From Pyxidicoccus trucidator (GTDB taxonomy: Bacteria > Myxococcota > Myxococcia > Myxococcales > Myxococcaceae), in contig NZ_JAAIXZ010000003.1 of assembly GCF_010894435.1 (NCBI RefSeq), forward strand, positions 1 through 64,000: DNA of 64,000 nt, given 5' to 3'. Every line of letters begins with the position of its first letter. Positions within the stretch are counted from its first letter, which is position 1. The notes beneath the pieces are model-generated. The model saw only the letters and a list, made by a program, of their open reading frames with translations, ran no database searches and was not told where the DNA came from. Position numbers and translations under genes: made by a program. This document shows, one piece after another, positions 15,701-60,140 of this stretch.

Positions 15701-16208
15701 GGCCTCCCGCGCGGTGGTTGACTTCGGTGCGCTGGGAGAGGGCCCTCTCGCGACGTCGGCCGCTGACCCCCTGCTGCGCTCGGGCATTGTCCTCGCGGGC
15801 GCGCGAGCCCCGGCGCCCTCCGGTTCCAGTGCCCCGCAGCTCCCGCCTGAGAGCGCGCTGGTGACGGCACTGGAGCTGGCGGGGCTCAACCTGTGGGGCA
15901 CCCAGCTGGTGGTGCTCTCGGCGTGTGACACGGGGCGAGGGGACGTGAAGCTGGGGCAGGGCGTGTACGGGCTGCACCGGTCATTCCTCGTGGCGGGAGC
16001 GGAGACGGTGGTGATGAGCCTGTGGAAGGTGAACGACGAGACGACCCGCGAGCTGATGGAGATCTACTATTCCAACCTGTTGGCGGGGCAGGGCCGCGCC
16101 ACGGCGCTACGCGAGGCGATGCGCGAGTTGCGGCAGACGCAGCCGCATCCCCACTACTGGGCGCCCTTCATCGCAATGGGCCGGGATACGCCCCTGCGCC
16201 TGCCCTGA
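12771..16208 (+). CDS. TPR-CHAT protease-like protein, exported (copy 1)
   Basis: An 1145-residue protein starting at an ATG with AGGAG upstream. A short Sec-type leader (WMLGVMLCCAAEAAGG) is followed by about a dozen 42-residue TPRs of the kinesin-light-chain type (consensus A-E-P-L-Y-x-R-A-L-A-I-R-E-A-A-L-G-K-x-H-P). From about residue 740 comes the CHAT domain, a caspase-like fold. The catalytic His is in HLATHGFFLED and the Cys in LSACDTGRGD; the end is HPHYWAPFIAMG. Both catalytic residues are present. Paralogue at 21322-24255. CHAT proteins are thought to be proteases switched by the TPR part. Its export suggests a role in the envelope or outside the cell, which is unusual for defence caspases. 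Confidence 0.85.
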   Translation: MGGIRGWMLGVMLCCAAEAAGGEKPSEAWSREAQTAFNEASTLWDAGRYDEAIARGEHALALREAVLGGAHPDVARCLALLGSHHLLRGNSVRAEPLLHRALAIQEAAMGKVHPEVAQTLNTLARLYSAQWLSARAEPLYLRALAIREAAFGKNHPLVAESLNHLANLYLDQDLYAQAEPLYARALAIREAALGRVHPEVAQTLYDFACFYLAQGRFGQAESLYKRALAIREAALGKSHPLVADPLEWLASLYEQQGLYARARPYHERALAIRKAALGDHPPDAADTLNKLADLYLSRRLYARAEPLYARALAIREAALGKSHPLVAASLYNLAAVYHAQGLYGQAEPLHERALAILEAAHGKDHPDVTYSLVSLGRLYMVQGLFTRAEPLFTRALVIREAAFGENHPLLIEPLNHLADLYAAQGLYGLAEPLYARAMTIVEAVLGKNHPFIAPSLRGLALLYTAQRLYRQAEPLHMRALVVYEAAFGKNHPPIAESLNSLADLYSVQGLHGRARPLYERALAIQEATRGKNHPSAAKTLNHLAVVCLAQHRLAQALPLLTRAFAISEQRLRQEALGFSEEHLAHFLQFLRADEERLYALLRAHPDNARVRRLALGAAFLLKGRSVEESSNISRTVYRSLGAQDRDAFERLKGLRTELAQLSLQGPGALPPKAYQQRLDELSAQGSALEADLARRSAPLRALAALPPPAEIVDRVAAALRRDGALIELIAYMDRPLVPGPGTPKPQSSGHLRYLALVLFPDATIRFRDLGPAEPIDLAASRLRDALANRDATFQAPAQALYQLVFQPLLPLLGETRRLFLSPDGQLALVPFAALHDGHQFLVDAFDFTYVPSGKDLLLAPQEAHPPDSVVVLADPDFSAPLRAPAHAQEDTPALTSRSASAVRSRSTLRADLAQRAWDLAPLPGSRQEAEAIQRLLPRAQLFLGAEATKERLLRVPTPGILHLATHGFFLEDAPEAPASRAVVDFGALGEGPLATSAADPLLRSGIVLAGARAPAPSGSSAPQLPPESALVTALELAGLNLWGTQLVVLSACDTGRGDVKLGQGVYGLHRSFLVAGAETVVMSLWKVNDETTRELMEIYYSNLLAGQGRATALREAMRELRQTQPHPHYWAPFIAMGRDTPLRLP

Positions 16209-21321: not shown

Positions 21322-24255
21322 CTATGGCTTCGGCTCCAGCCCGTGCAGCGGAGCGTCTCGGCCCAGCGCGATGAAGGGAGCCCAGTAGTGCGGGTGGGGC
21401 TGGGTGGCCCGCAACCAGAGCATGGCCTCGCGCAGGGCGGTGGCGCGGCCCTGACCCGCGAGCAGTCTCTGGTAGTAGGCCTCCATCAAGTGCCGGGTGG
21501 TGTCGTCGTTCACCTTCCACAGCCCCATCACCACCGTCTCGGCCCCCGCCAGCACGAGCGCGCGGCGCAGCCCGTAGACGCCCTGGCCTGGCTTTACGTC
21601 GCCCCGGGCGGTGTCGCAGGCGGATAGCACTACCAGTTGGGTGCCCCACAGGTTGAGGCCCGCCAGTTCCAGCGCCGTCGCCAGCGCGCTGTCGGGCGGG
21701 GACTGGGGCGCGCCGGAGGCGGAGGGCGCCGGCGCATTCGCCCCCGCGAAGAGCAGGCCGGAGCGCAGCAGCGGGTCCGAGGGGCGTGGAGCAAGAGGGG
21801 CCTCGCCCAGCGCACCGAAGCTGCCGACGGCGCGGGTATTCGTAGAAGCCGGGGCGTCATCCAGAAAGAAGCCATGCGTTGCCAGGTGGAGGATGCCGGG
21901 GGTGGGCACTTGCAGCAGCCGCTGTTTGGTGGCCTCCGGGCCCAGGAAGAGCTGGGCCTGGGGCAGCAGGCGCTTGATGGCCTCGGCCTCCTGGCGGGAG
22001 CCTGGCAGGGGGACGAGGTTCCAGTCCCGCTGCGCCAGCTCCTCACGCCGCGTGGAGAAGAAGCGATCAACGGAGGTGGAGCGCTCGGCTGGCGCGGGAG
22101 CCTCTTCCTTGGAGCGCGCGGGTGCCTGGGGTGGGGCGCTGAAGTCAGGGTCGGCCAGGACGACGACAGAGGAAGCGGGGACAGGCTGCTGGGGGCGAGG
22201 CAGCAGCTCCTTGCCGGAGGTGAGGTAGGTGAAGTCGAAGGCCTCCACGAGGAAGCGCTCGCCGTCGTGCAGGGCGGCGAAGGGCACCAGGGCCAGCTGT
22301 CCATCCGGCGAGAGGAAGAGGCGGCGGGCCTTGCCCAGCAGTGGAAGCAGGGGTTGAAAAGCGAGCTGATGGAGTGCCTGGGCCTGAGCCTGGAAGGTGG
22401 CCTCGCGGTTGGCCAGGGCGTCTCGTAGGCGCGAGGCGGCGGAGTCGATGGGTTCGGCGGGGCCCAGGTCGAGGGTGCGAATGCTGGCGTCCGGGAAGAG
22501 CACCAGCGCCAGGTAGCGGAGGTGGGGCTCTGGGACGCCGGGCCCGCGCGCGAATGGACGGTCCTGATAGGTGATGAACTCGATGAGGGCACCGTCCCTG
22601 GGCAGGGCCTGGGCGACCCGGCCGACGATGTCAGCGGGAGACGGCAGCGCGGCCAGCGCGCGCAGGGGGGCGGATTGCCTGGCGAGGTCGGCTTCGAGGG
22701 CATCCCCCTGCGAGGCAAGCGCTTTGAGCTGTTGTTGGTGGGCAGTCAATGGGAGCGAGCCAGGGCCCTGGAGCGAGCGACTCGCCAGCTGGGTGCGCAG
22801 CCCGCGCAACCGCTCGAAGGTTTCGCGCTCCTGGGCGCCCAGGCGCTGGTAGACAGCACGGTAGATGTCCGCCGTCTCCTCGACGGAGCGGCCTTTGAGC
22901 AGCAGGGTGGCAGACAGGGCCATGCGCCTGATGCTGGCGTTTTCGGGGTGTGCGCGCAGCAGCGCATAGAGCAGCTCCTCGTCGGTCCGCAAAAGCTGGA
23001 GGAAGCTGGCCAGGCGCGCCTCGGAGAAGCCGAGTGCCTCCTTGCGCAGGCGCTGCTCGGACATGGCGAAGGCGCGCGTGAACAGCGGGACGGCCGCGCC
23101 GAGGCGCTTCTGGCCCACCTTGAGCAGGGCGAGGTGGTTGAGTGAGACGGCGACGTAGGGATGGTTCTTGCCAAGGGCCGCTTCCCAAATGGCGAGTGCG
23201 CGCTCGACGAGCGGCTCGGCCCGGCCGTACAACCCCTGCTCACGGTAGCGATTGGCAAGGTTGTTGAGCGAGGTGGCGATGCTGGGATGGTTCTTGCCGA
23301 GGGTCGCTTCGTTGATGGCGAGCGCGCGCTCGAAGAGCGGCTCGGCCCGGCCGTGCAACCCCTGCGCAGCGTAGACGTTGGCGAGGTTGTTGAGCGAGTT
23401 GGCGACGTAGGGGTGGCTCTTGCCCAGCGCCTCCTCCAAAATGGCGAGCCCACGCTCGTAGAGCGGCTCGGCCCGGCTGTACAGGTGCTGGGCCACGTAG
23501 AGGTTGGCGAGGTTGTTGAGCGCGATGGCGACGTAGGGATGGTTCTTGCCGAAGGCCTCCTCCCAAATGGCGAGCGCGCGCTCGCGGAGCGGTTCGGCCC
23601 GGCCGTACAGCCCCTGGGAATGGTAGAGGCCGGCGAGGTCGTTGAGCGAGTTGGCGACGTCGGGATGGTTCTTGCCGAGGGCCCCTTCGCCAATGGCGAG
23701 CGCGCGCTCGAAGAGCGGCTCGGCCCGGCCGTACAACCCCTGCGCACGGTAGATGTTGGCGAGGCCGTTGAGCGAGGTGGCGATGCTGGGAGGGTTCTTG
23801 CCGGGGGCCGCTTCGCCAATGGCGAGCGCGCGCTCGAAGAGCGGCTCGGCCCGGCCGTACAACCCCTGAGCATCGTAGAGGTTGGCGAGGCTGTTGAGCG
23901 AGGTGGCGACGTCGGGATGGTTCTTGCCGAGCGCCGCTTCCCGAAGGGTGAGCCCGCGTTGAAGCAGTGGCTCGGCTCGGGCGAAGTTCCCCTGGGTTTG
24001 CTGCAACCCACCGAGCAGGTCCAGACAGCTGGCGACGTCTGGATGCGAGGCCCCGAGCACCGCCTCCCGCAGCACGCGCGCATGTTCACCCTGCGCCACA
24101 GCCTCGGCGTACTTGCCCGCCTTTTCGAGTGTTATCGCTTTGTCATAGGCCGTCTGCGCTTCCTGCAGCCGTGCATCCGGCGGGTTCTCCCCGGCCGCCG
24201 CTTTTGCTGCACAGCACAGGGCCACCACTGCCATCCACACGAGAACCTGTCGCAT
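21322..24255 (-). CDS. TPR-CHAT protease-like protein, exported (copy 2)
   Basis: A 977-residue paralogue of the protein at 12771. The ATG at 24255 follows GGGGGAG. The leader is WMAVVALCCAAKAAAG. About nine 42-residue TPRs follow (A-E-P-L-F-E-R-A-L-A-I-x-E-A-A-L-G-K-N-H-P), fewer than in copy 1. The CHAT domain has the catalytic His in HLATHGFFLDD and the Cys in LSACDTARGD, and the same HPHYWAPFIA end. The TPR units are very similar to one another at DNA level, so unit number may change by recombination. Its substrate is unknown. Confidence 0.85.
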   Translation of the reverse strand: MRQVLVWMAVVALCCAAKAAAGENPPDARLQEAQTAYDKAITLEKAGKYAEAVAQGEHARVLREAVLGASHPDVASCLDLLGGLQQTQGNFARAEPLLQRGLTLREAALGKNHPDVATSLNSLANLYDAQGLYGRAEPLFERALAIGEAAPGKNPPSIATSLNGLANIYRAQGLYGRAEPLFERALAIGEGALGKNHPDVANSLNDLAGLYHSQGLYGRAEPLRERALAIWEEAFGKNHPYVAIALNNLANLYVAQHLYSRAEPLYERGLAILEEALGKSHPYVANSLNNLANVYAAQGLHGRAEPLFERALAINEATLGKNHPSIATSLNNLANRYREQGLYGRAEPLVERALAIWEAALGKNHPYVAVSLNHLALLKVGQKRLGAAVPLFTRAFAMSEQRLRKEALGFSEARLASFLQLLRTDEELLYALLRAHPENASIRRMALSATLLLKGRSVEETADIYRAVYQRLGAQERETFERLRGLRTQLASRSLQGPGSLPLTAHQQQLKALASQGDALEADLARQSAPLRALAALPSPADIVGRVAQALPRDGALIEFITYQDRPFARGPGVPEPHLRYLALVLFPDASIRTLDLGPAEPIDSAASRLRDALANREATFQAQAQALHQLAFQPLLPLLGKARRLFLSPDGQLALVPFAALHDGERFLVEAFDFTYLTSGKELLPRPQQPVPASSVVVLADPDFSAPPQAPARSKEEAPAPAERSTSVDRFFSTRREELAQRDWNLVPLPGSRQEAEAIKRLLPQAQLFLGPEATKQRLLQVPTPGILHLATHGFFLDDAPASTNTRAVGSFGALGEAPLAPRPSDPLLRSGLLFAGANAPAPSASGAPQSPPDSALATALELAGLNLWGTQLVVLSACDTARGDVKPGQGVYGLRRALVLAGAETVVMGLWKVNDDTTRHLMEAYYQRLLAGQGRATALREAMLWLRATQPHPHYWAPFIALGRDAPLHGLEPKP

Positions 24256-24311
24256 GTCTCCCCCTTGGGCCCACAATACGGCCATCCACCGTTCAACAGC
24301 CTCCACCCCAA

Positions 24312-44291: not shown

Positions 44292-45587
44292 TTAGCAGCT
44301 GTCCTCCTGCTTCGCGCTGAGCGCCGCGAGCACTCGGTCCAGCTTCTCGTTCGTCTCTTGGAGCCGGGCCCCGTCGACTGGGCTCGATGATGACCGGTGC
44401 TCGAGGAGCTTCCGGGCGAGGCTCACCACCCCGTGCGCAGAGCTCACCATCTCGGCGCGCGACCGCAAATCGAGTCTCAGTGTCCAGACAGTCTCCCCAC
44501 CGCGGCAGTGGATTGGACATGGGGGCACTGTTCCTTCACCAGGAACCACGATGAGCGCCGCGGGGCTGCGAAAGGCGCGGCAATAGGCCAGCACCTGGTA
44601 GACGTCCGAGCTGGGAGGGTCGCGAACGTCCTTGTACTTCGCGTCGATTGGCAGCTCCGCCAGCCGGCGGCGCACGAGGACATCCGGCCTCACCTTGACC
44701 GAGCGCTCCTCGTCGAGGAATCGCTCCTGCGGTTCGAGCGTGATGGAGTACTCCTCTGTTGGCAGCCCCGTGCGGAGGGCTCTCCCGACGAACGCTTGGA
44801 ACAACGCGTTCATGTCGATCCAGAACCCGCTCGCCTCTTCACCGGTCGCCGCATCCGAGAATCCCAGCGCGCGGAGCACCGACTCGGCGAGCCGGAGGGC
44901 AGCGCGATAGAACGGGTCCCGACTCCGCGAGGCAAGGCGCCCCGCCACAGCCGCAGCGCATGGGAGCGGGGAGGGGAGTCCCCGGAGGACCTCGGCCGCC
45001 CCCTTGCGGAGTGGTGCGGAAAACACCATCGGCGAGCCCAACAGTCGTTGGACTGCGTAGGCCAGCACCCGGTTCTCCTCAGCGTCCTGCTCGAAGTCCT
45101 CAAATGCGCACGCGAGTTTGACGCGTGCGCTGACGTGCTCGAGCCCGGTACGTCGAACGTCGATCCGCCCGCGCGCGTAGGTCAGGACCTCTTCGCGAGG
45201 CACGTAGTCCCGGCGGAGTCCGCGCCGGCAGAGCTGCGCCACGGCGCTCACGAACGCGTATCCGATGAGTTCCTGCAACTCCGCGGCGACGCCCACGGAA
45301 GCACGGCCCACCAGGTGGAGGCGTCCCACCTCGTCGCCGAGAAGCGCGAGCACGGCCGCATCCGGGATCTTCGGGACGATCCGCAGATTCAGGCCTCCGA
45401 ACCGGCCAACGCCGACCCAGTGCTTTGCCTGCAGCTCGCAGCTGCCATCCGGACGCAGCCGCAGCTCCACGATTGACGGCTGGCTCGCAAGCAGCGCCGT
45501 GATGACTGCGGGTGGAAGTTTCCCCGACCACCTCTCCCACTCACGAAGGAGAAGCGGGCCCCCGGGCTCGGTCGTGGTGACGCTCAC
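44292..45587 (-). CDS. mcrC: McrC-family restriction subunit
   Basis: A 431-residue McrC homologue. The N-terminal domain has VGRFGGLNLRIVPKIP, and the middle AFEDFEQDAEENRVLAYAV. The nuclease core is PD-(D/E)XK-like: KVRPDVLVRR followed by LPIDAKYKD (D...D-x-K), the catalytic residues in McrC. The ATG overlaps the McrB stop by four bases. With McrB it should form a GTP-dependent enzyme that cleaves DNA with modified cytosines, a type IV restriction system acting on modified phage or foreign DNA. Confidence 0.9.
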   Translation of the reverse strand: MSVTTTEPGGPLLLREWERWSGKLPPAVITALLASQPSIVELRLRPDGSCELQAKHWVGVGRFGGLNLRIVPKIPDAAVLALLGDEVGRLHLVGRASVGVAAELQELIGYAFVSAVAQLCRRGLRRDYVPREEVLTYARGRIDVRRTGLEHVSARVKLACAFEDFEQDAEENRVLAYAVQRLLGSPMVFSAPLRKGAAEVLRGLPSPLPCAAAVAGRLASRSRDPFYRAALRLAESVLRALGFSDAATGEEASGFWIDMNALFQAFVGRALRTGLPTEEYSITLEPQERFLDEERSVKVRPDVLVRRRLAELPIDAKYKDVRDPPSSDVYQVLAYCRAFRSPAALIVVPGEGTVPPCPIHCRGGETVWTLRLDLRSRAEMVSSAHGVVSLARKLLEHRSSSSPVDGARLQETNEKLDRVLAALSAKQEDSC

Positions 45588-47791
45588 CCTGTCGGGCCCT
45601 GCATCGAACGGGCGCGGACCTTGGCGAGCGAGAATTCGGCCACCTTCGACGGCTCCGCGAAGAAGAGCTCCCGAACCAACGGAAGAATGCTCGTCGCCCA
45701 GAGTTCCTCCAACTCGTCGGCGTCAAGTGAGTCGCGCATGAAGTACGAGTGACCAATGAGGCGCTCAGGCTCGATTCCCGCCGTCTCCAGCTCGCGGTTG
45801 AGCGTCTGAAAGAGCGCGGAGACCTCCAGCGGCAGCTTCTTGCGCTCGATCCATGCACGCAGCACGCCCTCGTCCGGGCCCAGCTCGAAGAAGTGGAACC
45901 TGCGGCGAAGTGCGAGGTCGAAGAGCGCGATTGAACGGTCCGCGTTGTTCATCGTGCCGAGGAGGATGATGTTCCTCGGTATCGAGAACTGCTCCTTCGA
46001 CTGTGGCAGGGTAATGGTCTCTTCCCGGCGCTCGAGCAACATCATCAGCTCGCCAAAGATTCGCGGAAGGTTTCCGCGGTTGATTTCGTCGATGACCAGC
46101 ACGTGCTGATGCGTCGGCTGCGCTCGAGCGCGCTCACACAGTCTGCGGAAGACGCCCGGTACGATTTCGTACTGGAGGTGGCCCTGCTTCACGACTGGGC
46201 GAAGCCCCTCGATGAACTCCTCGTAGCCGTAGGACGGGTGGAACTGGACCTTTTCGACCCTGACGCGGTCGCCGGCGAGGGCGTTGGCCAGTCGAAGTGC
46301 GAGTTCGGTCTTTCCCGTCCCCGGCGGGCCGCCCAGGATGACCTGCCCGCTGCGGCGCGCACGGTCGGCAATCCTGTTCACGAGCGTGCGCGCCATTCCC
46401 AGGTCGTCCGCGAGGGTGTCCAGGTCCGCCGTCGTTGCCGGCGTCACCGATGAGTGGACCGCGACGGGGACGGAGGCAGGAGTGCCTGCGTGTCCGGACA
46501 GGACGGACAACGCCAGATCGTGAAGCGCCGCCGGGACGCCATGGCGCTGGCGCATGCGCCGGACGAGGTCGCAGTACTCGAAGTACGCGGAGGCGAGACG
46601 GTCACCCAAAGGAGGGTCGACGCGCATCAGGCGTCGGACCGCGGTGTCGAGTGACGTCAACCAGACCGCGTACTGCTCGGGGTCTTTGAGAAACAGCACG
46701 GCGGTCGGAAAGCTGGTCCCAGCGTTGGGGATATCCGCGTCGAAGAACGCCTGGAGTGCTGACGCCGTCTCCTCGTCACTCTTTGCATTCCAGAGCCCGG
46801 CGATGAGCGGATTCAGCCGATCGAGCGCGGCGACCATCGAGTTGGCGTTGTGGCCGACGAACTGCGGCGCGAACCGGGTGTACACCTTGCCCTTGCCGTT
46901 CTTTCCTTCGCAGGTGTTCAGGTGCGTGAAGACCTGTCTCAGGTCGGCCTCGCTCAGCGCTCCAAGCCGCGACTCGATCAGCTCCTTCGCCTGGGCTTGT
47001 GCCTCCTCACGCAGCACGCGGTCGCCGTGGGCCTCCACCAGGACTCTATGCAGCGTCGACGCGGCTGCGGACTGGTCAGGCGGAAGGGCTGCACCTCCGG
47101 GTGTCCCTGGGAGGTCTTGGTTGGTCTCGACGTATGCGGCGCGCGACAGCGCTACGAAGTCCCCGCCGAGCTTGGACCTCACCTGCTCCACCAGCGCCCG
47201 GTACGAGGTGAAGTCCTCCGCCATGAAGGGCAGGCCCTGCCTCTCCAGCGCTGCGCAGGTGTTTCCATCCAGCGGTACGAACTCGTCGGGCCGAAGCCAG
47301 AACAGCCCCTGCGTCAGCTTCCGGATCGCCACCTGCTTGACCCTCAAGCCGCGGTCGAATTTCGCCGCAGTGACGCCATTGAGGCCCGCCTCGACGGCTG
47401 CTCTCGCGAGCGCCCACAAAGCTGGGATGTCGTCGCTCTTCCGCGCCCTGGCGTAGGCAAAGAACCATGAGTTCTGGTTGTTCGCCGTCGGGATGCCGTC
47501 GAAGTCGGTCGGGAGCGGGCTCTGGAGACTCAAGTGCGCCTTGCACCGTTCCAGGATGGCGACGCGATGCGCTGGAACGATGCTTCGGTTGAACGAAGCG
47601 AAGAACGTGAACGGGTCGATGACGGCCAGGGGAAACGGCTTCCCATCGGCGTCCAGGTCCGTGAATTGGCCAGCCGGAACTCCCTCTGCTTTCAGCGATT
47701 GAAGGAGCGACAGCAGCTCCCCCTGTCGCGACTCGTAGGCGGCCAGCTTCTCCGCGAGCTCGCGGTAGATGGGCATCCAGGAAAAGGACAT
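45584..47791 (-). CDS. mcrB: McrB-family AAA+ GTPase restriction subunit
   Basis: A 735-residue protein; ATG 47791 preceded by GGAG. The AAA+ module has Walker A GGPPGTGKT (487-495), Walker B VLVIDEINRGN (564-574), and the McrB-specific TMNNADRS (613-620). The 480-residue N-terminal half (FTFFASFNRSIVPAHR, IPALWALARAA, LLPD-like helices) would recognise modified DNA; it does not look like the E. coli McrB DNA-binding domain and suggests another modification specificity. First gene of the McrB-McrC-SitA6-SitI6 run. Confidence 0.9.
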   Translation of the reverse strand: MSFSWMPIYRELAEKLAAYESRQGELLSLLQSLKAEGVPAGQFTDLDADGKPFPLAVIDPFTFFASFNRSIVPAHRVAILERCKAHLSLQSPLPTDFDGIPTANNQNSWFFAYARARKSDDIPALWALARAAVEAGLNGVTAAKFDRGLRVKQVAIRKLTQGLFWLRPDEFVPLDGNTCAALERQGLPFMAEDFTSYRALVEQVRSKLGGDFVALSRAAYVETNQDLPGTPGGAALPPDQSAAASTLHRVLVEAHGDRVLREEAQAQAKELIESRLGALSEADLRQVFTHLNTCEGKNGKGKVYTRFAPQFVGHNANSMVAALDRLNPLIAGLWNAKSDEETASALQAFFDADIPNAGTSFPTAVLFLKDPEQYAVWLTSLDTAVRRLMRVDPPLGDRLASAYFEYCDLVRRMRQRHGVPAALHDLALSVLSGHAGTPASVPVAVHSSVTPATTADLDTLADDLGMARTLVNRIADRARRSGQVILGGPPGTGKTELALRLANALAGDRVRVEKVQFHPSYGYEEFIEGLRPVVKQGHLQYEIVPGVFRRLCERARAQPTHQHVLVIDEINRGNLPRIFGELMMLLERREETITLPQSKEQFSIPRNIILLGTMNNADRSIALFDLALRRRFHFFELGPDEGVLRAWIERKKLPLEVSALFQTLNRELETAGIEPERLIGHSYFMRDSLDADELEELWATSILPLVRELFFAEPSKVAEFSLAKVRARSMQGPTG

Positions 47792-49901: not shown

Positions 49902-52076
49902 TCACTGAACCGGAAAATCGTCTCCCAGGAGCCCCCGCCAGAGCGCGAGCGCTCCGGCGGTGTCGCCCGCCCGCTCCAGTTCCAGGGCCTGAGCAGCCTG
50001 GTGCGCGGCTTCGGCCAGTCGCTGCTGCCCCTGCGCGAGGTATCCCGCCTCCAACCCTGCGTTGAGGGGGGGACCGAGTCCTGCCGGGTCCCGCCACTCC
50101 TCCAGGATGCTCTCGCTCATGAACCTGAGCAGGTGCGCCAGGCCCTGTGAGTAGACGGAGAGGCTCGAGTCCGGGCTGAATGAGTCGATGCCCGCGCAGG
50201 CCATCACCTCCAACAGAAATGACGGCACGGGCCTACCCTGGAGCTGATTCCAGCGCTTGATGGCCTTGATGAGTGGCTTCAGCCGCCGCTGCGCCTTTGC
50301 ATTCGCCGTCTCGCTGGCCTCGATGTGTTTGCGCGGGTTGCTGTGGATCCACCCTCCGAGGCGCCAGTCTGGAATCCAGTACGCGCCCGGCTGGCGCGGG
50401 TCCTCCAAGGCGGGGACGACATCGAAGCCGATGCCAGTCCCGTCGAACTCGAGGTTGACCGAGCGGTTCCGCAGCTGCACCGGCTTGCCAGGGAACTCCG
50501 CCTCGAGCGCCTCCTTGACGCGCTTCAGGAAGTCCCCGGGCAGGTCCCTTCCGCTCCCGCTGCGCTCCTCGGTGAAGACGAGAAAGAGGTCGATATCGTG
50601 CAGCGGGCGGATGGCCGTGTTCCGGACATAGGCGCCGCTGAGAATGAACTCCTTGGGCTCCAGCCGGCGCTTCATCGCCTCGAATACGTTGCGCGCCTGG
50701 CGTTTCGCCTCGCTCTTCTCCGCCGCCTGCAGCTCCAGGGACCGCATGAACTTCTCGAACCCCTGGGCCACGGTCGACATCGCCGGTGTCTGGGGCTCTG
50801 CTGGCGACACGAGGGGACGCTCGGACACGACAGGGGGGGCCTCACGAAGCTCGCCGAGCCGCTTCCGCATCGTCTCCCGCAGGCGGCGCGTCTCGCGCTC
50901 GTCGAACCCAGCCTCCTCCAGCCGCTCCATCCAGGACTCCGCGACGTCACAGAGCTTGTCGAGCAGCTTGACGATGGCGCCCTCCTTCACCCCGTAGCGC
51001 TCCCCGAAGTCGATGAAATGGGCCCGCTTGAGGTTGTCGTTCCTCCCCTCGAATTGCAGCGCCATGAGCCGGTCGCCGTAGGGCAGCGTGGTGAGCACGT
51101 CGTACGCAGGTGACAGCCGGAAGCCTCCCGCCGGGCCGTCCGCGAGGATGCTCACGTTCTTCGCGTGCAGGTCCCCGTTGCCAATGAGGTAGCTGAAGGC
51201 GAGCAGCAGGAGGAAGCGGGCCATCTCGGGAATCGGCGCCGTGCACGTCTCGAGAATCCCCTCCGCGATGTCCGAGCAGGGGATGCGGTACTTTTCCCCC
51301 GGGTACTTGTCGAGGAACTGGCAGGCGTCCTCCTGGTGGAGCCGCCGAAACCGCTTCTCCTCCTTCTCCCACACTCGGTCGAAGCGCTCCACCAGGAGCC
51401 CCGGGTTCTTCTCCCGGTCGTGGATGAGCCGCGTGGTGGCGACCTTCAGGCCGCAGGCCTTCGCCATCCGCATGAAGAAGTACTCGTTCTGGACGAGCTG
51501 GGGCTTCTCGTCGGGATTCAGCTTGAGGATGTACGCGTGCCGCCCGGACATCCGCACGGGAAACGAGATGGTCGATGCCGAGACCTTCTCCTGCACGCCA
51601 GGGATGACGGGCTCGGTTCCCTCCGCCGTCCGGGTGAGGCTCTGCTCGAACAAATCCTTGAAGAGAACCGTGTCCGGACTCCACCGCTCCGCGCGCGTCT
51701 CGAGCTCCGCCAGGCTTTCTCCCCGCGGGACGACCGAGAGGTCTCCGATGGTGTCGGTGCCCGCGGCAATGAGCAGGCTGAGCAGGTCGTCCTCCGAGGT
51801 CTTCACGCGCTGGACCAACGCGCGCAGCCGGAGCCCCTCGGGCAACAGGCCCGCGAAGTACGTATGGAGATTCGTTCCCCACGTCTCGACACGCCGCTGA
51901 ACGTAGGGAAGGTGGACCGCGAGGCCTCCTTCCTGCCGCGAGTACTGCGCGAAGAAGTTCTCGTCGTATTCGAAGACCGAGCCGCGCGGGGTGCGTGTGA
52001 TGGAGCCGACGCGCTTCGTCTCCCGCCACACGTCGGCGACCTGGACGTCAGTAGGCCGAATCACGCAGCTTCTCAC
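49902..52076 (-). CDS. HipA-family kinase fused to a CD-NTase-like nucleotidyltransferase
   Basis: A 724-residue protein. GTG 52076 gives a 29-nt overlap with hipB; GTG 52064 is an alternative. Residues 1-415 are HipA-like: VGSITRTPRGSVFEYDENFF, GVQEKVS (160-166), YILKLNPDE (182-190), catalytic loop NGDLHAKN (300-307) and YDVL (325-328). After a linker rich in Pro and Glu (412-435), residues about 440-700 form a nucleotidyltransferase: SGAYVRNT (480-487), HDIDLF (493-498, D494 and D496), and FDVVPA (551-556, D552), then a helical end with DPAGLGPPLNAG. These are the three metal ligands of CD-NTase/SMODS enzymes. All key residues appear intact in both halves. No fusion of this type is known to me. 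The role could be a toxin that phosphorylates a target and an NTase that modifies RNA/protein or makes a nucleotide signal; this is inference. Confidence 0.8.
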   Translation of the reverse strand: MRSCVIRPTDVQVADVWRETKRVGSITRTPRGSVFEYDENFFAQYSRQEGGLAVHLPYVQRRVETWGTNLHTYFAGLLPEGLRLRALVQRVKTSEDDLLSLLIAAGTDTIGDLSVVPRGESLAELETRAERWSPDTVLFKDLFEQSLTRTAEGTEPVIPGVQEKVSASTISFPVRMSGRHAYILKLNPDEKPQLVQNEYFFMRMAKACGLKVATTRLIHDREKNPGLLVERFDRVWEKEEKRFRRLHQEDACQFLDKYPGEKYRIPCSDIAEGILETCTAPIPEMARFLLLLAFSYLIGNGDLHAKNVSILADGPAGGFRLSPAYDVLTTLPYGDRLMALQFEGRNDNLKRAHFIDFGERYGVKEGAIVKLLDKLCDVAESWMERLEEAGFDERETRRLRETMRKRLGELREAPPVVSERPLVSPAEPQTPAMSTVAQGFEKFMRSLELQAAEKSEAKRQARNVFEAMKRRLEPKEFILSGAYVRNTAIRPLHDIDLFLVFTEERSGSGRDLPGDFLKRVKEALEAEFPGKPVQLRNRSVNLEFDGTGIGFDVVPALEDPRQPGAYWIPDWRLGGWIHSNPRKHIEASETANAKAQRRLKPLIKAIKRWNQLQGRPVPSFLLEVMACAGIDSFSPDSSLSVYSQGLAHLLRFMSESILEEWRDPAGLGPPLNAGLEAGYLAQGQQRLAEAAHQAAQALELERAGDTAGALALWRGLLGDDFPVQ

Positions 52077-52326
52077 TCACTTGAAAGCGCTGCTTGCCAC
52101 TCTCGAGCGTCAGTTGCAGCCCGAGGACGTTGAGGACATCGAGGAGCTTGTCGAGCCGCAGGGTCGGCTTGCGACCGTTCTCCACGTCGTAGACGAAAAC
52201 AGGGCCACAGCCGGCCAGGGTGCTCACGTCGTGCTGGGTCAACCCCAGCCGCTTGCGCTGGGTCCGCACCGCCTGCGCGAGCGCCTGCATCCAGCTTCTC
52301 GCTTCACCGGGTCCATCCAATGACAT
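52048..52326 (-). CDS. HipB-type XRE antitoxin/repressor
   Basis: A 92-residue protein. ATG 52326. The HTH is LAQAVRTQRKRLGLTQHDVS followed by TLAGCGPVFVYDVENGR, as in HipB. The C-terminal tail (VSEKLRDSAY) is short. It overlaps the HipA/NTase gene. HipB proteins bind HipA and repress their own operon through T-A-T-C-C-N8-G-G-A-T-A operators; four very similar sites lie upstream here, so autoregulation is likely. Upstream in-frame sequence to 52506 is not needed and would run through two of the operators. Confidence 0.85.
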   Translation of the reverse strand: MSLDGPGEARSWMQALAQAVRTQRKRLGLTQHDVSTLAGCGPVFVYDVENGRKPTLRLDKLLDVLNVLGLQLTLESGKQRFQVSEKLRDSAY

Positions 52327-52368
52327 GGGCTTCGGTACTCCTGCGCGGCCCCCACCTGGGAAGCAGAA

Positions 52369-52386
52369 TCCATCCGTTCGAATGGA
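52369..52386. promoter_or_regulatory. Operator O1 of hipB
   Basis: TCCAT-N8-ATGGA, 43 bp upstream of the hipB ATG. A possible -10 (TAGATT, minus strand) overlaps its edge, so occupation would block transcription. Confidence 0.75.
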
Positions 52387-52430
52387 ATCTAGCGCTGGTG
52401 AGGGCAGTTCGCCATTTTCTGGGCGCCAAA

Positions 52431-52448
52431 TCCATCCCATCGGATGGA
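52431..52448. promoter_or_regulatory. Operator O2 of hipB
   Basis: TCCAT-N8-ATGGA, centre 62 bp from that of O1. The arms extend to AATCCAT and ATGGATT. Confidence 0.75.
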
Positions 52449-52491
52449 TTTGAGTATCATCGCGCGGCCCAAGGGGACTTCCGTACGTATT

Positions 52492-52509
52492 TCCATGCGC
52501 TCGCATGGA
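52492..52509. promoter_or_regulatory. Operator O3 of hipB
   Basis: TCCAT-N8-ATGGA, centre 61 bp from O2. Flanking GTACGTAT and TTGGTACGC make a longer imperfect palindrome. Confidence 0.75.
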
Positions 52510-52553
52510 TTGGTACGCATTTCAGGCGCAGGAGCCCAGTTTTTGCCCTGTTT

Positions 52554-52571
52554 TCCATCTGCTCGCGTGGA
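52554..52571. promoter_or_regulatory. Operator O4 of hipB
   Basis: TCCAT-N8-GTGGA, one mismatch, centre 62 bp from O3. It lies outside any likely promoter of hipB, so it would act by looping or cooperative binding. Confidence 0.6.
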
Positions 52572-52609
52572 TTCTGAAACGCAGCCATGTGCGTACCGAA
52601 GCTGCGCCG

Positions 52610-52780
52610 GAGCAGGGGCTCCCACGCCGGCCTGCCCTCCCTGCTCCAGGAGGGCTTCCTGCTTCTGGCCGGAGAGCGAGGCCGCGCAGGCCACGTTGTA
52701 AGCGGCCCGGGTTTGCGCTCGCCGACTCCCGCTTCTGCGTAGAGGGAAAACAGCCTTGGCCCGAGCCACAGCCGCCGCAC
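52610..52780 (-). pseudogene. TPR-protein C-terminal fragment
   Basis: The minus strand reads AAYNVACAASLSGQKQEALL followed by EQGGQAGVG, the typical last repeat of bacterial TPR proteins (A-Y-N-L-A-C-x-x-S-L-x-G). Upstream, LFSLYAEAGVGERKPG is in another frame. No start; a remnant. Confidence 0.45.
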
Positions 52781-55175: not shown

Positions 55176-55955
55176 ATGCGCACCACGAACAAGCTCGCAG
55201 TCGCGGCGATGTTGGGTCTGTTTCTCGGCGGTTGCGGACCCACGGACACGAACCTGGGCGGCGAAGGCGTCGCCAGTCACCTCGAGCAGGACTTCGGTGG
55301 CCCGAGCGGCCTCGCCGGGTTCTTCGAGGGCCACTCCGAGGAGGAGATTCGAGCGGCGATGGCGCGGTACGGGGTGGGGTACGTCGTCCACGGGGAGGTC
55401 GATGCGGCTGCAATCAGCGACTGCCCGAAGTACTTCCCGTCGAGCGACCGGAACGTCTGGCACAACTTCGACGGTGAGTACTACTTCATCGACACCGCGG
55501 GCCGGCCGAACCGGGCGTACAAGTTCCTGCCGAAGATTCTCGCCGCGCCGCGCGCCGACTCCTGTCAGACGAGCGTGGGGCAGTGGGGCGACGCGGAGAA
55601 CTCCAGCAACGACTATGACGGGGGACACCTCATCGGCTCGCAGCTCGGGGGCTGGGGAGGCCGGGCGAACCTGGTGCCCCAGGATGCCAACTTCAACCGC
55701 GGCAACTGGCTGCAGCTCGAGAACAAGATGGCCACGTGCGGGGGCCTGCCGAGCGGCCGGCTGCGCTACTACGTCGGTGCGAACTACCCGAACTCCACCG
55801 CGCTCATCCCCAACAACATGACGCTGGAGCTCCGGAACCAGTCCACCGGGAGCAGCGTGTCGATGTCCTTCTCGAACGTGGATTACGGCGGCTCGAACGG
55901 AACGAACGAGCGGACCCGTGGCGTGAACTGGCTGTCGGGCCAGGGCTGTAACTGA
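55176..55955 (+). CDS. DNA/RNA non-specific endonuclease, lipoprotein
   Basis: A 259-residue protein with a lipoprotein leader (VAAMLGLFLGGCGPTD). The nuclease core reads DYDGGHLIGSQLGG then GRANLVPQDANFNRGNW, the D-x-G-H and N-x-x-x-N pattern of the Serratia-type beta-beta-alpha-metal nucleases (His as general base, Asn as Mg ligand). Cys residues around it are consistent with export. No candidate immunity gene follows. It is probably a surface nuclease for feeding on DNA or clearing matrix. Confidence 0.8.
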   Translation: MRTTNKLAVAAMLGLFLGGCGPTDTNLGGEGVASHLEQDFGGPSGLAGFFEGHSEEEIRAAMARYGVGYVVHGEVDAAAISDCPKYFPSSDRNVWHNFDGEYYFIDTAGRPNRAYKFLPKILAAPRADSCQTSVGQWGDAENSSNDYDGGHLIGSQLGGWGGRANLVPQDANFNRGNWLQLENKMATCGGLPSGRLRYYVGANYPNSTALIPNNMTLELRNQSTGSSVSMSFSNVDYGGSNGTNERTRGVNWLSGQGCN

Positions 55956-57119: not shown

Positions 57120-59567
57120 TCATCCCTTGTGATTCTCGAGAAATGCTGTGAACCAAGGGTGCTTACGTACAGGGTCCATGTCGCTATCACTCTCCAAGTG
57201 CTCGCGATTCGGCAGTTTCCCGTGCTCGCGTGCTCGCGTGAGCCATACGCGGCAATCCTCTGCTTGCCCTGTTAGCGCTGCAATGCAGGCCAGATTGTAG
57301 GAGCCCATTCCTGGCTTCTTTGCTTCTGCTTGGTTGAGTTTGTCGCGAGCTTGGTTGAACAGAGACTCCGCCTCTGTGCCAGTCTTCCACTTGGCCTGTT
57401 CCAATAGCGCGGTGCTCCAGTTGTTGAGGGCCTCGTGCATGTCCGGCTTGAGGCGCAGGGCCTCTGAGTACTTCTCGCCGGCCTGCTCGAAGAGGCGATC
57501 CGCCTCCGCGCCCATCTTCGTCTTGGCCCAGTCGGAGAGCGTGTTGCCCCAGTTATTGAGGGCATCGTGCATGTCCGGCTTGAGGCGCAGGGCCTCTGCG
57601 TACTTCGCGCCGGCCTGCTCGAAGAGGCGGTCCGCCTCCGCACCCGTCTTCGTCTTGGCCCAGTCGGAGAGCGCGGCACCCCAGTTGTTGAGGGCCGCGT
57701 GCATGTCCGGATTGAGGCGCAGGGCCTCTGCGTACTTCGCGCCGGCCTGCTCGCAGAGGCGGTCCGCCTCCGCACCCGTCTTCGTCCTGGCCCAGTCGTA
57801 GAGTGTGTTGCCCCAGTTGTTGAGGGCCGCGTGCATGTCCGGATTGAGGCGCAGGGCCTCTGCGTACTTCTCGCCGGCCTGCTCGAAGAGGTGGTCCGCC
57901 TCCGCACCCGTCTTTGTCTTGGCCCAGTCGGAGAGCGCGGCGCCCCAGTTGTTGAGGGCCGTGTGCATGTCCGGCTTGAGGCGCAGGGCCTCTGCGTACT
58001 TCGCGCCGGCCTGCTCGAAGAGGCGGTCCGCCTCCGCACCCGTCTTCGTCTTGGCCCAGTCGGAGAGCGTGTTGCCCCAGTTATTGAGGGCCTCGTGCTT
58101 GTCCGGCTTGATGCGCAGGGCCTCTGCGTACTTCACGCCGGCCTGCTCGAAGAGGCGGTCCGTCTCCGCACCCGTCTTCGTCTTGGCCCAGTCGGAGAGC
58201 GCGGCGCCCCAGTTGTTGAGGGCCGTGTGCATGTCCGGCTTGAGGCGCAGGGCCTCTGCGTACTTCGCGTCGGCCTGCTCGAAGAGGCGGTCCGCCTCCG
58301 CACCCGTCTTCGTCTTGGCCCAGCCGTAGAGTGTGTTGCCCCAGTTGTTGAGGGCATCGTGCATGTCCGGATTGAGGCGCAGGGCCTCTGCGTACTTCTC
58401 GCCGGCCTGCTCGAAGAGGCGGCTCGCCTCCGCACCCGTCTTCGTCCTGGCCACCTCGATGAGCGAATTGCCTTTCACGACGTAAGCCCATGCGAGTGGC
58501 TCCTGAAGGCTTGGAACCGTGCCGCTCTCGTAGGCAGGACGCAGCTTGATGATTTCATCGTACTGTCCGGCCATTAGCATTGCGGAAGCATCAATGCCCT
58601 GGGCAATTCTGGATTCGCTACCCTTCGGAGTGGTGCTCTTGACTTCATAGGCCGCGATTGCCCGCTTTACGCTCTCCTTGGCTGCACTAAGTGGATCGTA
58701 GTTCTCTGCCTGACCTGGAAGCGTGAAACGAGTGAGTTGCTTCAATGTGTATGCAAGATGCGAGAAGGGGCGCCCCACCAAGTCTGGGGGAAAGCACCCG
58801 AGCCGCTGCGTCAATTCGACGAAGAATCCATCAGCCTCGTAGCCAGGAACCCAGCATCGATCCGCTCCATCAAAAGTCAGCGTCTTGCGAACGGAGGCCG
58901 CAGGCTCATTGTCTTTGTAGCCCACCCAGTAGATGCCGTATTGGTGAGGGGCTGCGACCAGGAGATCGACCAGAGGATCGTTCTCTCCGCTGTAGCCAAC
59001 TACGATCCACATGCGGCCTTCGCCAGCCTTCTGGAACACCGGCTTTATCTGCTCCGCATGTCTCGTGAGTTCTTCGGGGGTGTTCAGCAGCACGAATCCC
59101 GAGCGCTGGCCGTGGAGGTGGAAGACCGCAGGACTGGGAACCATGTCCGGGATGAATTGTGTCGCGGCAGCAAAGTCGTAGACCGCCGGGAACTCATTCA
59201 CCAGCGCGCAGGCGCGTAGGATCAAGGGGTCGAAGTTCGTGGTGAAGATGCGGTCCACGTATCCATGGGCGACGAGCTGGGCAATGCCGACGTGAGCCCA
59301 GTTGATGCCAGTGGCGTCATCGATGCTCTTCGCAACCAGGTCCCTCCGCACGTTCGAGGGGAGCTGCTTCATGCAGGCCCCGTAGGTCTTCTCGGGTGCC
59401 CTGTCGTAACGAAAGGGATGCGCCTCCTTGATGAGGTCTACGAATCCCTGGGCGGTAGGCACTCCGGCGGTAACAGAGCAGCCAGCGCCGATGAGCAAGG
59501 AGCACTTCTTGCCGTGGTTCTTGACGTGCCGGAGCTGCTCGACGACCTCTTGAATGGTGGTCTTCAT
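57120..59567 (-). CDS. SIR2-domain protein with tandem TPRs, candidate defence effector
   Basis: An 815-residue protein; ATG 59567 has only a weak ribosome-binding site. Residues 1-260 form a SIR2-like NAD-binding domain: LLIGAGCSVTAGVP (24-37), TTNFDPL (109-115, N111), FHLHG (149-153, H152), VVGYSGEND (189-197). This resembles the NADase-type SIR2 of anti-phage systems and not deacetylases, as there is no zinc ribbon. A helical linker follows. Then eight 44-residue TPRs (K-Y-A-E-A-L-R-L-x-P-D-M-H-x-A-L-N-N-W-G), nearly identical in DNA (132 bp), and a different final repeat (YNLACIAALTGQ). It is probably an abortive-infection sensor-effector; inferred from domains. Confidence 0.75.
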   Translation of the reverse strand: MKTTIQEVVEQLRHVKNHGKKCSLLIGAGCSVTAGVPTAQGFVDLIKEAHPFRYDRAPEKTYGACMKQLPSNVRRDLVAKSIDDATGINWAHVGIAQLVAHGYVDRIFTTNFDPLILRACALVNEFPAVYDFAAATQFIPDMVPSPAVFHLHGQRSGFVLLNTPEELTRHAEQIKPVFQKAGEGRMWIVVGYSGENDPLVDLLVAAPHQYGIYWVGYKDNEPAASVRKTLTFDGADRCWVPGYEADGFFVELTQRLGCFPPDLVGRPFSHLAYTLKQLTRFTLPGQAENYDPLSAAKESVKRAIAAYEVKSTTPKGSESRIAQGIDASAMLMAGQYDEIIKLRPAYESGTVPSLQEPLAWAYVVKGNSLIEVARTKTGAEASRLFEQAGEKYAEALRLNPDMHDALNNWGNTLYGWAKTKTGAEADRLFEQADAKYAEALRLKPDMHTALNNWGAALSDWAKTKTGAETDRLFEQAGVKYAEALRIKPDKHEALNNWGNTLSDWAKTKTGAEADRLFEQAGAKYAEALRLKPDMHTALNNWGAALSDWAKTKTGAEADHLFEQAGEKYAEALRLNPDMHAALNNWGNTLYDWARTKTGAEADRLCEQAGAKYAEALRLNPDMHAALNNWGAALSDWAKTKTGAEADRLFEQAGAKYAEALRLKPDMHDALNNWGNTLSDWAKTKMGAEADRLFEQAGEKYSEALRLKPDMHEALNNWSTALLEQAKWKTGTEAESLFNQARDKLNQAEAKKPGMGSYNLACIAALTGQAEDCRVWLTRAREHGKLPNREHLESDSDMDPVRKHPWFTAFLENHKG
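57420..58450 (-). repeat. 132-bp tandem repeat encoding TPRs, 264-bp higher-order unit
   Basis: Eight units spaced 132 bp. Even and odd units differ: NNWGNTL in one set and NNWGAALSDW in the other, alternating, so the array grew by duplication of 264-bp pairs. Confidence 0.8.
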
Positions 59568-59926
59568 GCGGGTGTCCCGTAGCTGAACATCCAAGCGCAC
59601 CGCTTCCAAGAGGGGGCATGCGTCTCCTGAGTACTGGACGCCACGAGTCTTGATGCAGTGCGCCGGAGCCTCGGGAGCTCGCGATGGCGGAGGCTCAAAG
59701 CATGGCGCCGGGTGGATGCCTTCCGGCTCGATCAGCCTCTGCTCAACGAGCCCGGCATCCGACGACGCATGGACTGGAGCCGGGTGGCGTCCGACCCGGG
59801 CAGCCCCAGGGCCCTGCGAGCGGAAGGAACAGTCATTCCACGGTGACCTTCCCAGCCGGGGGCTGCTCTGGGGCGCGAGCGGCCTGTGCCGACGTGTGCC
59901 CAAAGGGGCTGCACGGCCTCTCCACT

Positions 59927-59998
59927 CGTCCTGTGCACAGCCCCAGCGGCACCCGTCAGCAGCGTCCTGTGCACAGCCCCAGCGGCACCCGTCAGCGG
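59927..59998. repeat. 36-bp tandem repeat, two copies
   Basis: The unit starts CGTCCTGTGCACAGCCCC and ends CACCCGTCAGC plus two bases; the copies at 59927-59962 and 59963-59998 differ in one base. It is in the non-coding stretch 59568-60244, which otherwise shows only remnants. Confidence 0.7.
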
Positions 59999-60014
59999 CC
60001 CTCCGCGGCCATGT

Positions 60015-60140
60015 CGCCCCGTCACACGGCAGCATGAGGGTGAACGCCGCGCCCGCACCGGGAAGCTGTCGAGCGTCACGCCGTCGCCGTGGGCCTCGAC
60101 CACCTGCTTCACAATACAGAGGCTAGGCCGAAGCACCTCG
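60015..60140 (-). pseudogene. Histidine kinase ATPase-domain remnant
   Basis: The minus strand reads LCIVKQVVEAHGDGVTLDS then, after a frame change, GAGAAFTLMLPCDG. This is the G2-box end of a sensor histidine kinase (G-L-G-L-x-I-V-K-x-V-V-E-A-H-G-G...F-T-L-x-L-P). The rest of the gene is missing. Confidence 0.6.

What the first reader, a model, noticed from the sequence alone, without database searches (positions are those of the whole stretch)
49902..52326. HipBA with a nucleotidyltransferase fused to HipA: candidate undescribed toxin/defence system
A single protein joins a complete HipA-type kinase (GVQEKVS, NGDLHAKN, YDVL) to a CD-NTase-like domain with G-S, H-D-I-D and F-D-V-V-P-A, and is encoded behind hipB with overlap. 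HipA enzymes phosphorylate a tRNA synthetase; CD-NTases make cyclic nucleotides, and related MNT/NTase antitoxins AMPylate kinases. A fusion could let one half regulate the other (for example by AMPylation of the kinase) or could couple a nucleotide signal to growth arrest. It lies next to McrBC and other conflict genes. No separate CBASS effector is present, so the kinase itself may be the effector.
Basis: partly seen in the sequence, partly recalled or inferred. Interest (0 to 1): 0.95.

Follow-up and report, generated by a model that had tools for sequence, protein, structure and literature searches.

The report
Toxin kinase fused to CBASS cyclase
In one myxobacterial genome a HipA-type toxin kinase, encoded next to its HipB antitoxin, is joined in one protein to a CBASS-type nucleotide cyclase domain that lacks a serine found in all 118 relatives compared, so the cyclase half is likely inactive as an enzyme and the locus likely works as an ordinary toxin-antitoxin pair with a borrowed tail.

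Summary
The observation mostly holds: one open frame (49902-52064, minus strand) joins a full HipA kinase to a full CdnD-like CD-NTase and overlaps hipB. The stated G-S motif is absent: the frame reads S-G-A-Y, while 118 of 118 homologues have the serine. The HipA half breaks no family-invariant position; the CD-NTase half breaks five of 53, the most of 37 sequences. The fusion was found once: 1 of 195 phylum genomes, and only itself among long proteins scored. Close kin of each half are separate genes. The nearest hipA stops at the junction; here the frame runs on through a 20-residue linker to the cyclase's own Met, which lacks the Shine-Dalgarno match seen in eight kin cyclases. Eight of nine kin cyclases precede a CHAT-SAVED effector; none is in this window. 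HipB-type palindromes upstream are kept.

Best reading: a working hipBA module whose kinase carries a likely cyclase-dead CD-NTase tail, probably a recent chance fusion. An ATP-binding pseudo-cyclase gating the kinase is not excluded; nor is a one-base assembly error at the junction. New variant of a known kind.

The parts
49902..52064 (-). hipA::CD-NTase fused gene, 720 aa from GTG 52064 (724 aa from 52076)
   Evidence: one open frame, GC3 0.78-0.97 in each of the twelve full 60-codon blocks; domain hits on both halves
50841..52064 (-). HipA kinase half (residues 5-412)
   Evidence: HipA_C and Couple_hipA; 88% to P0122, a separate HipA of Pyxidicoccus xibeiensis; no invariant position broken
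50781..50840 (-). Pro-rich linker, residues 413-432, with a C7 run; starts where the nearest kin hipA ends
   Evidence: junction comparison; pLDDT under 50 over residues 414-431 in the model
49905..50780 (-). CD-NTase half (residues 433-724), begins at its own ATG/Met433
   Evidence: SMODS, PADLOC Cyclase, CdnD fold
50625..50633 (-). residues 482-484 (A-Y-V) where close kin read S-Y-G: GS-motif serine lost
   Evidence: S in 118 of 118 homologues; G484 in 35 of 35 close ones, 47 of 118 in all
52048..52326 (-). hipB antitoxin/repressor gene (XRE HTH), overlapping the fusion's start
   Evidence: HTH_31 38.6 bits; TIGR03070 couple_hipB 70.5 bits, just under its 71.65 cut-off; 87% to G079 HipB
52430..52449 (.). 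perfect palindrome ATCCATCC-N4-GGATGGAT, probable HipB operator
   Evidence: pattern scan: 3 sites in the window with up to 3 mismatches, 0.12 expected
52368..52387 (.). second operator-like palindrome, 62 bp from the first (2 mismatches)
   Evidence: like sites upstream of kin hipB
52491..52510 (.). third operator-like palindrome, 61 bp further (3 mismatches)

Best explanation
This is a hipBA toxin-antitoxin module whose HipA kinase runs in frame into a complete CD-NTase (CBASS cyclase) domain lacking the invariant GS-motif serine, so it likely works as an ordinary HipB-controlled growth-arresting kinase carrying a likely cyclase-dead tail. Shown: the single frame, the domain identities, the intact kinase motifs, the upstream palindromes, the lost serine, no Shine-Dalgarno match before the cyclase Met, and no SAVED-CHAT effector in the window. 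Inferred: HipB binds the palindromes and the kinase, and free HipA phosphorylates a translation target such as a tRNA synthetase. Inferred: a stray cdn gene came to lie just behind hipA, and a one-base loss at the hipA stop joined the two. Inferred: the tail no longer makes a signal but may still bind a nucleotide, since the three Asp, R485, H584 and K607 are kept, and it is tolerated or mildly used.
For: Kinase half under strong constraint: no invariant column broken among 119 HipA homologues. hipB and operator-like sites shared with kin. Cyclase half: 5 of 53 invariant columns broken, rank 1 of 37; the next are 4 of 57 and 3 of 56, mean of the others 0.69. S482A against 118 of 118. End branch 0.28, against 0.046-0.17 for 19 of its 20 clade mates, P0025 at 0.58 being the exception. 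In V. cholerae CdnG the motif serine touches the donor beta-phosphate in a predicted complex, and the G56A/S57A double mutant made no product (PMC12804361, passages); S53 of BcCdnD lines the donor ATP site (PMC13424991, passages). No Shine-Dalgarno match of 4 or more before Met433, whereas 8 of 8 kin genes examined have one. Fusion seen once. SAVED-CHAT gene next to 8 of 9 kin cyclases but not here.
Against: All catalytic carboxylates and the other donor-site residues are kept, so some activity could remain: a single S-to-A change was not among the mutants in the passages I saw, the double mutant still used about half the substrate, and some NTases outside this family have Gly there (recalled). 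The cyclase frame is intact over 292 codons, with the most private changes at third positions, which suggests some remaining use. Second:third-position changes are also raised in the HipA half (13:20 against 4:29, p 0.02 with one outgroup; p 0.59 with the other), so the whole gene could be relaxing. The window's own hipA start has only a 4-base Shine-Dalgarno match, so weak sites are not proof of non-translation. Toxicity and HipB control are untested.
Confidence: 0.5

Rival explanations
1. Pseudo-cyclase sensor: the dead CD-NTase still binds ATP or another nucleotide or a phage cue and gates the attached kinase, making a one-protein phage-triggered toxin.
For: Donor-site R485, H584, K607 and the three Asp are kept while the GS serine is lost; the frame is intact; a HipA-related kinase is needed for anti-phage protection in DS-6/HipAD (PMC13092281, passages); HipL is a precedent for a HipA-like kinase with an added C-terminal domain (PMC8262856, one passage).
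Against: One genome only; no sign of selection for the pairing; poorly predicted 20-residue linker and no confident inter-domain model (full-length pTM 0.45).
Confidence: 0.15
2. Active two-headed system: the cyclase makes a signal, or AMPylates the kinase, and the kinase is the effector.
For: Full CD-NTase fold with catalytic Asp triad; no separate SAVED-CHAT effector beside it.
Against: GS serine lost (118 of 118 have it); no SAVED or other ligand-binding domain found on the kinase; found once.
Confidence: 0.1
3. Two neighbouring genes, hipA and an orphan cdn, misjoined by a one-base error or a very recent indel.
For: In G079 hipA ends CTTCGC-TGA; here CTTCG-TGAGG, with the TGA one base out of frame, and a C7 run follows.
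Against: No Shine-Dalgarno match before the cyclase Met here, present in 8 of 8 kin examined, so it would hardly be made alone, though the window's hipA start is weak too; the gene lies about 50 kb inside an 803-kb contig; only one record, so no second read-out.
Confidence: 0.12
4. Decaying fusion with no function left in either half.
For: Found once; long cyclase branch; weak excess of second-position changes, in the HipA half with one of two outgroups only.
Against: HipA keeps every invariant residue, hipB and operators are kept, no stop or frameshift.
Confidence: 0.13

Closest known systems
hipBA type II toxin-antitoxin modules (nearest: Pyxidicoccus xibeiensis HipA, P0122, 88%)
   Same: hipB beside or overlapping hipA, kinase motifs, TCC-N8-GGA-type palindromes upstream, spaced 58-68 bp where two or more were seen
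   Different: the nearest kin HipA ends at the residue where this one runs on into a linker and a CD-NTase
CBASS CD-NTases, CdnD-like (P. aeruginosa CdnD 6p8u; nearest kin P0004, Pyxidicoccus sp. 3LG, 73%)
   Same: whole fold, Asp triad, lid and donor Arg/His/Lys
   Different: GS serine replaced by Ala; no Shine-Dalgarno match of its own; no SAVED-CHAT gene in the window; fused to a kinase
HipL kinases (HipA homologues with a C-terminal HIRAN domain; PMC8262856, one passage)
   Same: HipA-type kinase core with an added C-terminal domain
   Different: added domain is SMODS/CD-NTase, not HIRAN, and the N-terminal Couple_hipA part is kept
HipAD / DS-6 (PMC13092281, passages)
   Same: HipA-related kinase; loss of a predicted catalytic residue lost the anti-phage protection in that system
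   Different: partner is a DUF3037/DUF1829 protein without similarity to HipB; no NTase domain is mentioned in the passages seen
HEPN-MNT and other NTase-antitoxin pairs (recalled; HEPN-MNT pairing seen in passages of PMC2701414)
   Same: an NTase-fold protein tied to a toxin
   Different: the NTase here is a full CD-NTase with the CdnD-like helical C-terminus and is fused to a kinase toxin

Membership tests
HipBA type II toxin-antitoxin | HipA N- and C-terminal domains in one protein | tested here: met
   Couple_hipA 63.3 and HipA_C 163.4 bits, over cut-offs
HipBA type II toxin-antitoxin | hipB HTH gene directly upstream, overlapping | tested here: met
   HTH_31/HTH_3 over cut-off; TIGR03070 70.5 against 71.65, just under
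HipBA type II toxin-antitoxin | kinase motif residues kept | tested here: met
   no invariant column of 119 homologues broken, incl. Q162/K164, D302/N307, D326
HipBA type II toxin-antitoxin | palindromic HipB operators upstream | tested here: met
   three sites upstream of hipB, 0.12 expected in the window; like sites in 6 of 8 kin scanned; TATCC-N8-GGATA consensus of E. coli recalled; binding untested
HipBA type II toxin-antitoxin | toxicity relieved by HipB | not testable with these tools
   needs expression in a lab strain
CBASS | CD-NTase domain | tested here: met
CBASS | complete NTase active site (GS motif plus Asp triad) | tested here: not met
   A482 where 118 of 118 have S; Asp triad kept
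CBASS | effector gene beside the cyclase | tested here: not met
   no SAVED-CHAT relative in the window; the genome's one SAVED match is on contig C23 with another CD-NTase. Other effector types were looked for only among the seven window ORFs scanned and two
CBASS | cyclic oligonucleotide made on infection | not testable with these tools
   needs biochemistry
MNT-type NTase antitoxin | minimal NTase (MNT) fold | tested here: inconclusive
   NTP_transf_2 21.2 bits against 21 cut-off, but the best matches are CD-NTases; no MNT chain among the 50 rows listed
HipL kinases | C-terminal HIRAN domain, no N-subdomain-1 | tested here: not met
   C-terminal domain is SMODS and Couple_hipA is present

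The most novel reading that the evidence does not exclude
A toxin kinase has captured a CBASS cyclase as a built-in pseudo-enzyme sensor: the GS-less CD-NTase binds ATP or a phage cue without cyclising it and switches the attached HipA kinase on, giving a one-protein immune receptor that bypasses the second messenger.
Probability: 0.14. Interest if true: 0.85.

Novelty: new variant of a known kind. Interest (0 to 1): 0.42.

Why it matters
No HipA::CD-NTase protein other than this one appeared in the searches made here (papers: as listings; proteins; genomes). If the tail is used, it would be a route by which toxin-antitoxin and cyclic-nucleotide immunity merge: a cyclase turned into a sensor fused to its effector. 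If not, it is a clean natural snapshot of two conflict genes joined at a stop codon, with the kinase kept and the cyclase active site already altered. Either way a single protein makes the question testable.

Tried and rejected
Misjoin by large assembly error: no evidence. GC3 and frame are continuous, and the window shows no trace of the cdn operon (tblastn of five operon proteins gave only weak hits, best E 0.003 and 0.005, CHAT-like, elsewhere in the window).

Fusion elsewhere: viral contigs gave 2 pattern hits and 0 relatives. Plasmids gave 2,881 records with a match, none covering 80% of the query in one place; only the 15 best rows were seen. Limits: the long-protein search scored only the 7,995 candidates sharing most words; the genome searches scored at most 11, 7 and 5 first-look candidates per genome, and one search's match list was cut. 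Distant HipA-CD-NTase fusions could be missed.

Same neighbourhood in kin: all 12 HipA loci fetched carry a HipA gene of the group and none has a CD-NTase by the gene call (two, L041 and L043, were called with truncated HipA starts). The window matches the loci held then at DNA level only within 49923-52640.

Structure of the whole fusion: mean pLDDT 65, pTM 0.45. The HipA half is poor because alignments with many HipA rows put the cyclase rows on the HipA half (A2, A4), so only four HipA rows besides the fusion itself could be used (A5). No domain arrangement is claimed.

Pairwise dN/dS did not run (import error) and was not repeated; private codon-position counts were used instead and are weak.

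CapK as a HipA relative: rejected; the paper describes it as resembling anti-sigma-factor kinases (GHKL) and does not name HipA (PMC13373217, abstract and passages).

Full report

THE LOST SERINE. Of the 120 proteins listed (146 passed its cut-off), 118 of 240-330 aa were aligned (P0002 too long and P0036 too short were dropped). Position 482 is Ser in 118 of 118; position 484 is Gly in 35 of 35 close kin but in 47 of 118 overall. The donor- and acceptor-site residues named for BcCdnD (PMC13424991, passages), mapped by eye, are otherwise kept: Asp494, Asp496, Asp552, R485, H584, K607, R538, S539. In V. cholerae CdnG the motif serine contacts the donor beta-phosphate in a predicted complex, and a G56A/S57A double mutant made no 3'2'-cGAMP, with substrate use down by about 50% (PMC12804361, passages). 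A single serine change was not among the mutants I saw, so 'likely inactive as a cyclase' is inference.

CONSTRAINT ON THE TWO HALVES. Leave-one-out over columns invariant in all other rows: the CD-NTase half breaks 5 of 53 (S482A, G484V, Q536R, I542L, C588S), the most of 37 sequences (next 4 of 57 and 3 of 56; mean of the others 0.69). The HipA half breaks none, in a 32-row or a 120-row set. In trees the CD-NTase half has an end branch of 0.28 inside a 21-row clade (100/99) where 19 of 20 others have 0.046-0.17 and one 0.58; the HipA half has 0.083 against 0.038 for its sister. Private changes by codon position: CD-NTase 24/34/42 against 19/14/40 in G003; HipA 10/13/20 against 7/4/29 in G079. 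The second:third contrasts give p 0.04 for the CD-NTase (both outgroups), and 0.02 or 0.59 for HipA depending on the outgroup; nonsynonymous:synonymous codon contrasts are not significant (p 0.52, 0.12). So the cyclase half is relaxed at its active site but not plainly neutral; some change may predate the fusion.

HOW IT AROSE. The nearest HipA (Pyxidicoccus xibeiensis, 88%, P0122) is a separate gene with its hipB; G079 is taken to be that genome because the contig lengths agree. DNA identity of 88% runs from 52640 to 50845 and stops at the end of hipA. Its 3' end reads GAGCTTCGC-TGA. Here it reads GAGCTTCG-TGAGG, so a TGA lies one base out of frame and the frame runs on through 20 Pro-rich residues to the cyclase's own ATG (Met433; most close kin start M-x-T-V-A-Q). 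A one-base loss at the stop, after a cdn gene came to lie about 60 bp downstream, is the simplest history (inferred; the linker itself aligned to neither kin). A sequencing error of one base would give the same picture. Against it: no Shine-Dalgarno match of four or more bases precedes Met433, whereas 8 of 8 kin genes examined have one (8 of the 9 full-length kin with 46-71% identity; G076 was not examined). The window's own hipA start has only a 4-base match, so this is support, not proof.

HOW COMMON. A match spanning both halves: 1 of 96 family genomes, 1 of 145 in the order, 1 of 195 in the phylum (nested sets; at most 11, 7 and 5 candidates scored per genome). In a protein search restricted to long proteins only the window's own protein and one 460-aa cyclase without a HipA domain matched, of 7,995 scored. 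Paper searches: HipA+SMODS+nucleotidyltransferase 0 papers; HipA/CBASS/CD-NTase/fusion 45 papers holding at least three of the four terms, none of the 20 listed naming HipA; the 15 of 34 and 12 of 28 papers listed show no such fusion in title or abstract start.

CONTEXT. Nine full-length kin of the cyclase with 46-71% identity were listed in the family and all nine loci fetched. In 8 of 9 the next gene belongs to the protein cluster of a CHAT-SAVED effector (Pfam and PADLOC checked on the L024 member only); in G015 the cyclase has no such neighbour. The window has no such gene. The genome's one SAVED match sits on contig C23 with another CD-NTase, HORMA, TRIP13, ECF sigma and two further protease-like proteins. 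The fused cyclase therefore has no SAVED-CHAT partner beside it. Around it lie McrBC and a SIR2-TPR gene.

THE TOXIN-ANTITOXIN SIDE LOOKS INTACT. Three ATCCATCC-N4-GGATGGAT-like palindromes lie upstream of hipB at 62- and 61-bp steps, the only ones in the window (3 found, 0.12 expected). Like sites lie upstream of kin hipB genes in 6 of the 8 other loci scanned (G079, G065, G028, G020, G017, G037; not G021, G044), 58-68 bp apart where two or more were seen. They resemble the E. coli HipB operator (recalled).

MECHANISM. Shown: architecture, motifs, lost serine, palindromes, no Shine-Dalgarno match, no SAVED-CHAT in the window. Inferred: HipB represses and neutralises; freed kinase phosphorylates a translation factor and arrests growth; the tail makes no signal but may bind nucleotide. 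Whether the tail gates the kinase cannot be told from sequence; the full-length model is too poor (pTM 0.45) to show contacts.

VERDICT. Real fusion in the assembly, correctly spotted, with one misread motif. The evidence fits a hipBA module with an accidental, catalytically weakened CD-NTase tail better than a new signalling system. A fusion seen in one genome keeps the interest moderate; the pseudo-cyclase sensor reading is the bold case that the evidence leaves open.

Noticed in passing
L024 8000-16325; also L025, L026, L028, L029, L030, L031: Kin cyclases head a conserved myxobacterial operon: CD-NTase, CHAT-SAVED, ECF sigma factor, zf-HC2/TPR/CHAT protein (anti-sigma-like), small protein, Peptidase_C25-like protein. 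It looks like a CBASS counterpart of the CRISPR protease/sigma systems (domains checked on L024 only).
   Followed up: partly
L054 2000-12095 (G000 contig C23): The window's genome holds a separate CBASS locus: sigma, CHAT protein with weak zf-HC2 and TPR matches, C25-like, CHAT-SAVED, CD-NTase, HORMA, TRIP13.
   Followed up: partly
L030 8520-11921; L025 14895-18560: A second, distant CD-NTase with ThiF (E1-like) and JAB genes follows the operon in L030, as in type II CBASS; L025 has genes of the same clusters.
   Followed up: no
L033-L038: More distant kin cyclases stand in groups of one to three near large genes of one cluster that look kinase-like by eye, with no SAVED-CHAT cluster member.
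   Followed up: no
L039 (G079) and L032 (G071): The nearest hipBA and a CD-NTase/CHAT-SAVED pair both lie beside relatives of one PKD/beta-helix lipoprotein-like gene and share three further gene clusters nearby, hinting at one shared insertion region.
   Followed up: partly
57120-60035 (-): SIR2-like domain followed by many near-identical TPR repeats; PADLOC matches up to 84 bits to SIR2 pAgo-associated and PDC-S65 models.
   Followed up: partly
44292-47791 (-): McrC gene and McrB-like AAA gene, overlapping.
   Followed up: partly
12792-16208 (+) and 21322-24285 (-): Two related long proteins with weak similarity to the CHAT protein of the kin operon (E 0.003 and 0.005).
   Followed up: no
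55176-55955 (+): Lipoprotein-like DNA/RNA non-specific endonuclease (PF13930, 109 bits).
   Followed up: no
L064 (G000:C1:669297-670418): A protein 38% identical to the CHAT part of the kin effector, in an open frame of 1,092 codons without a SAVED match.
   Followed up: no
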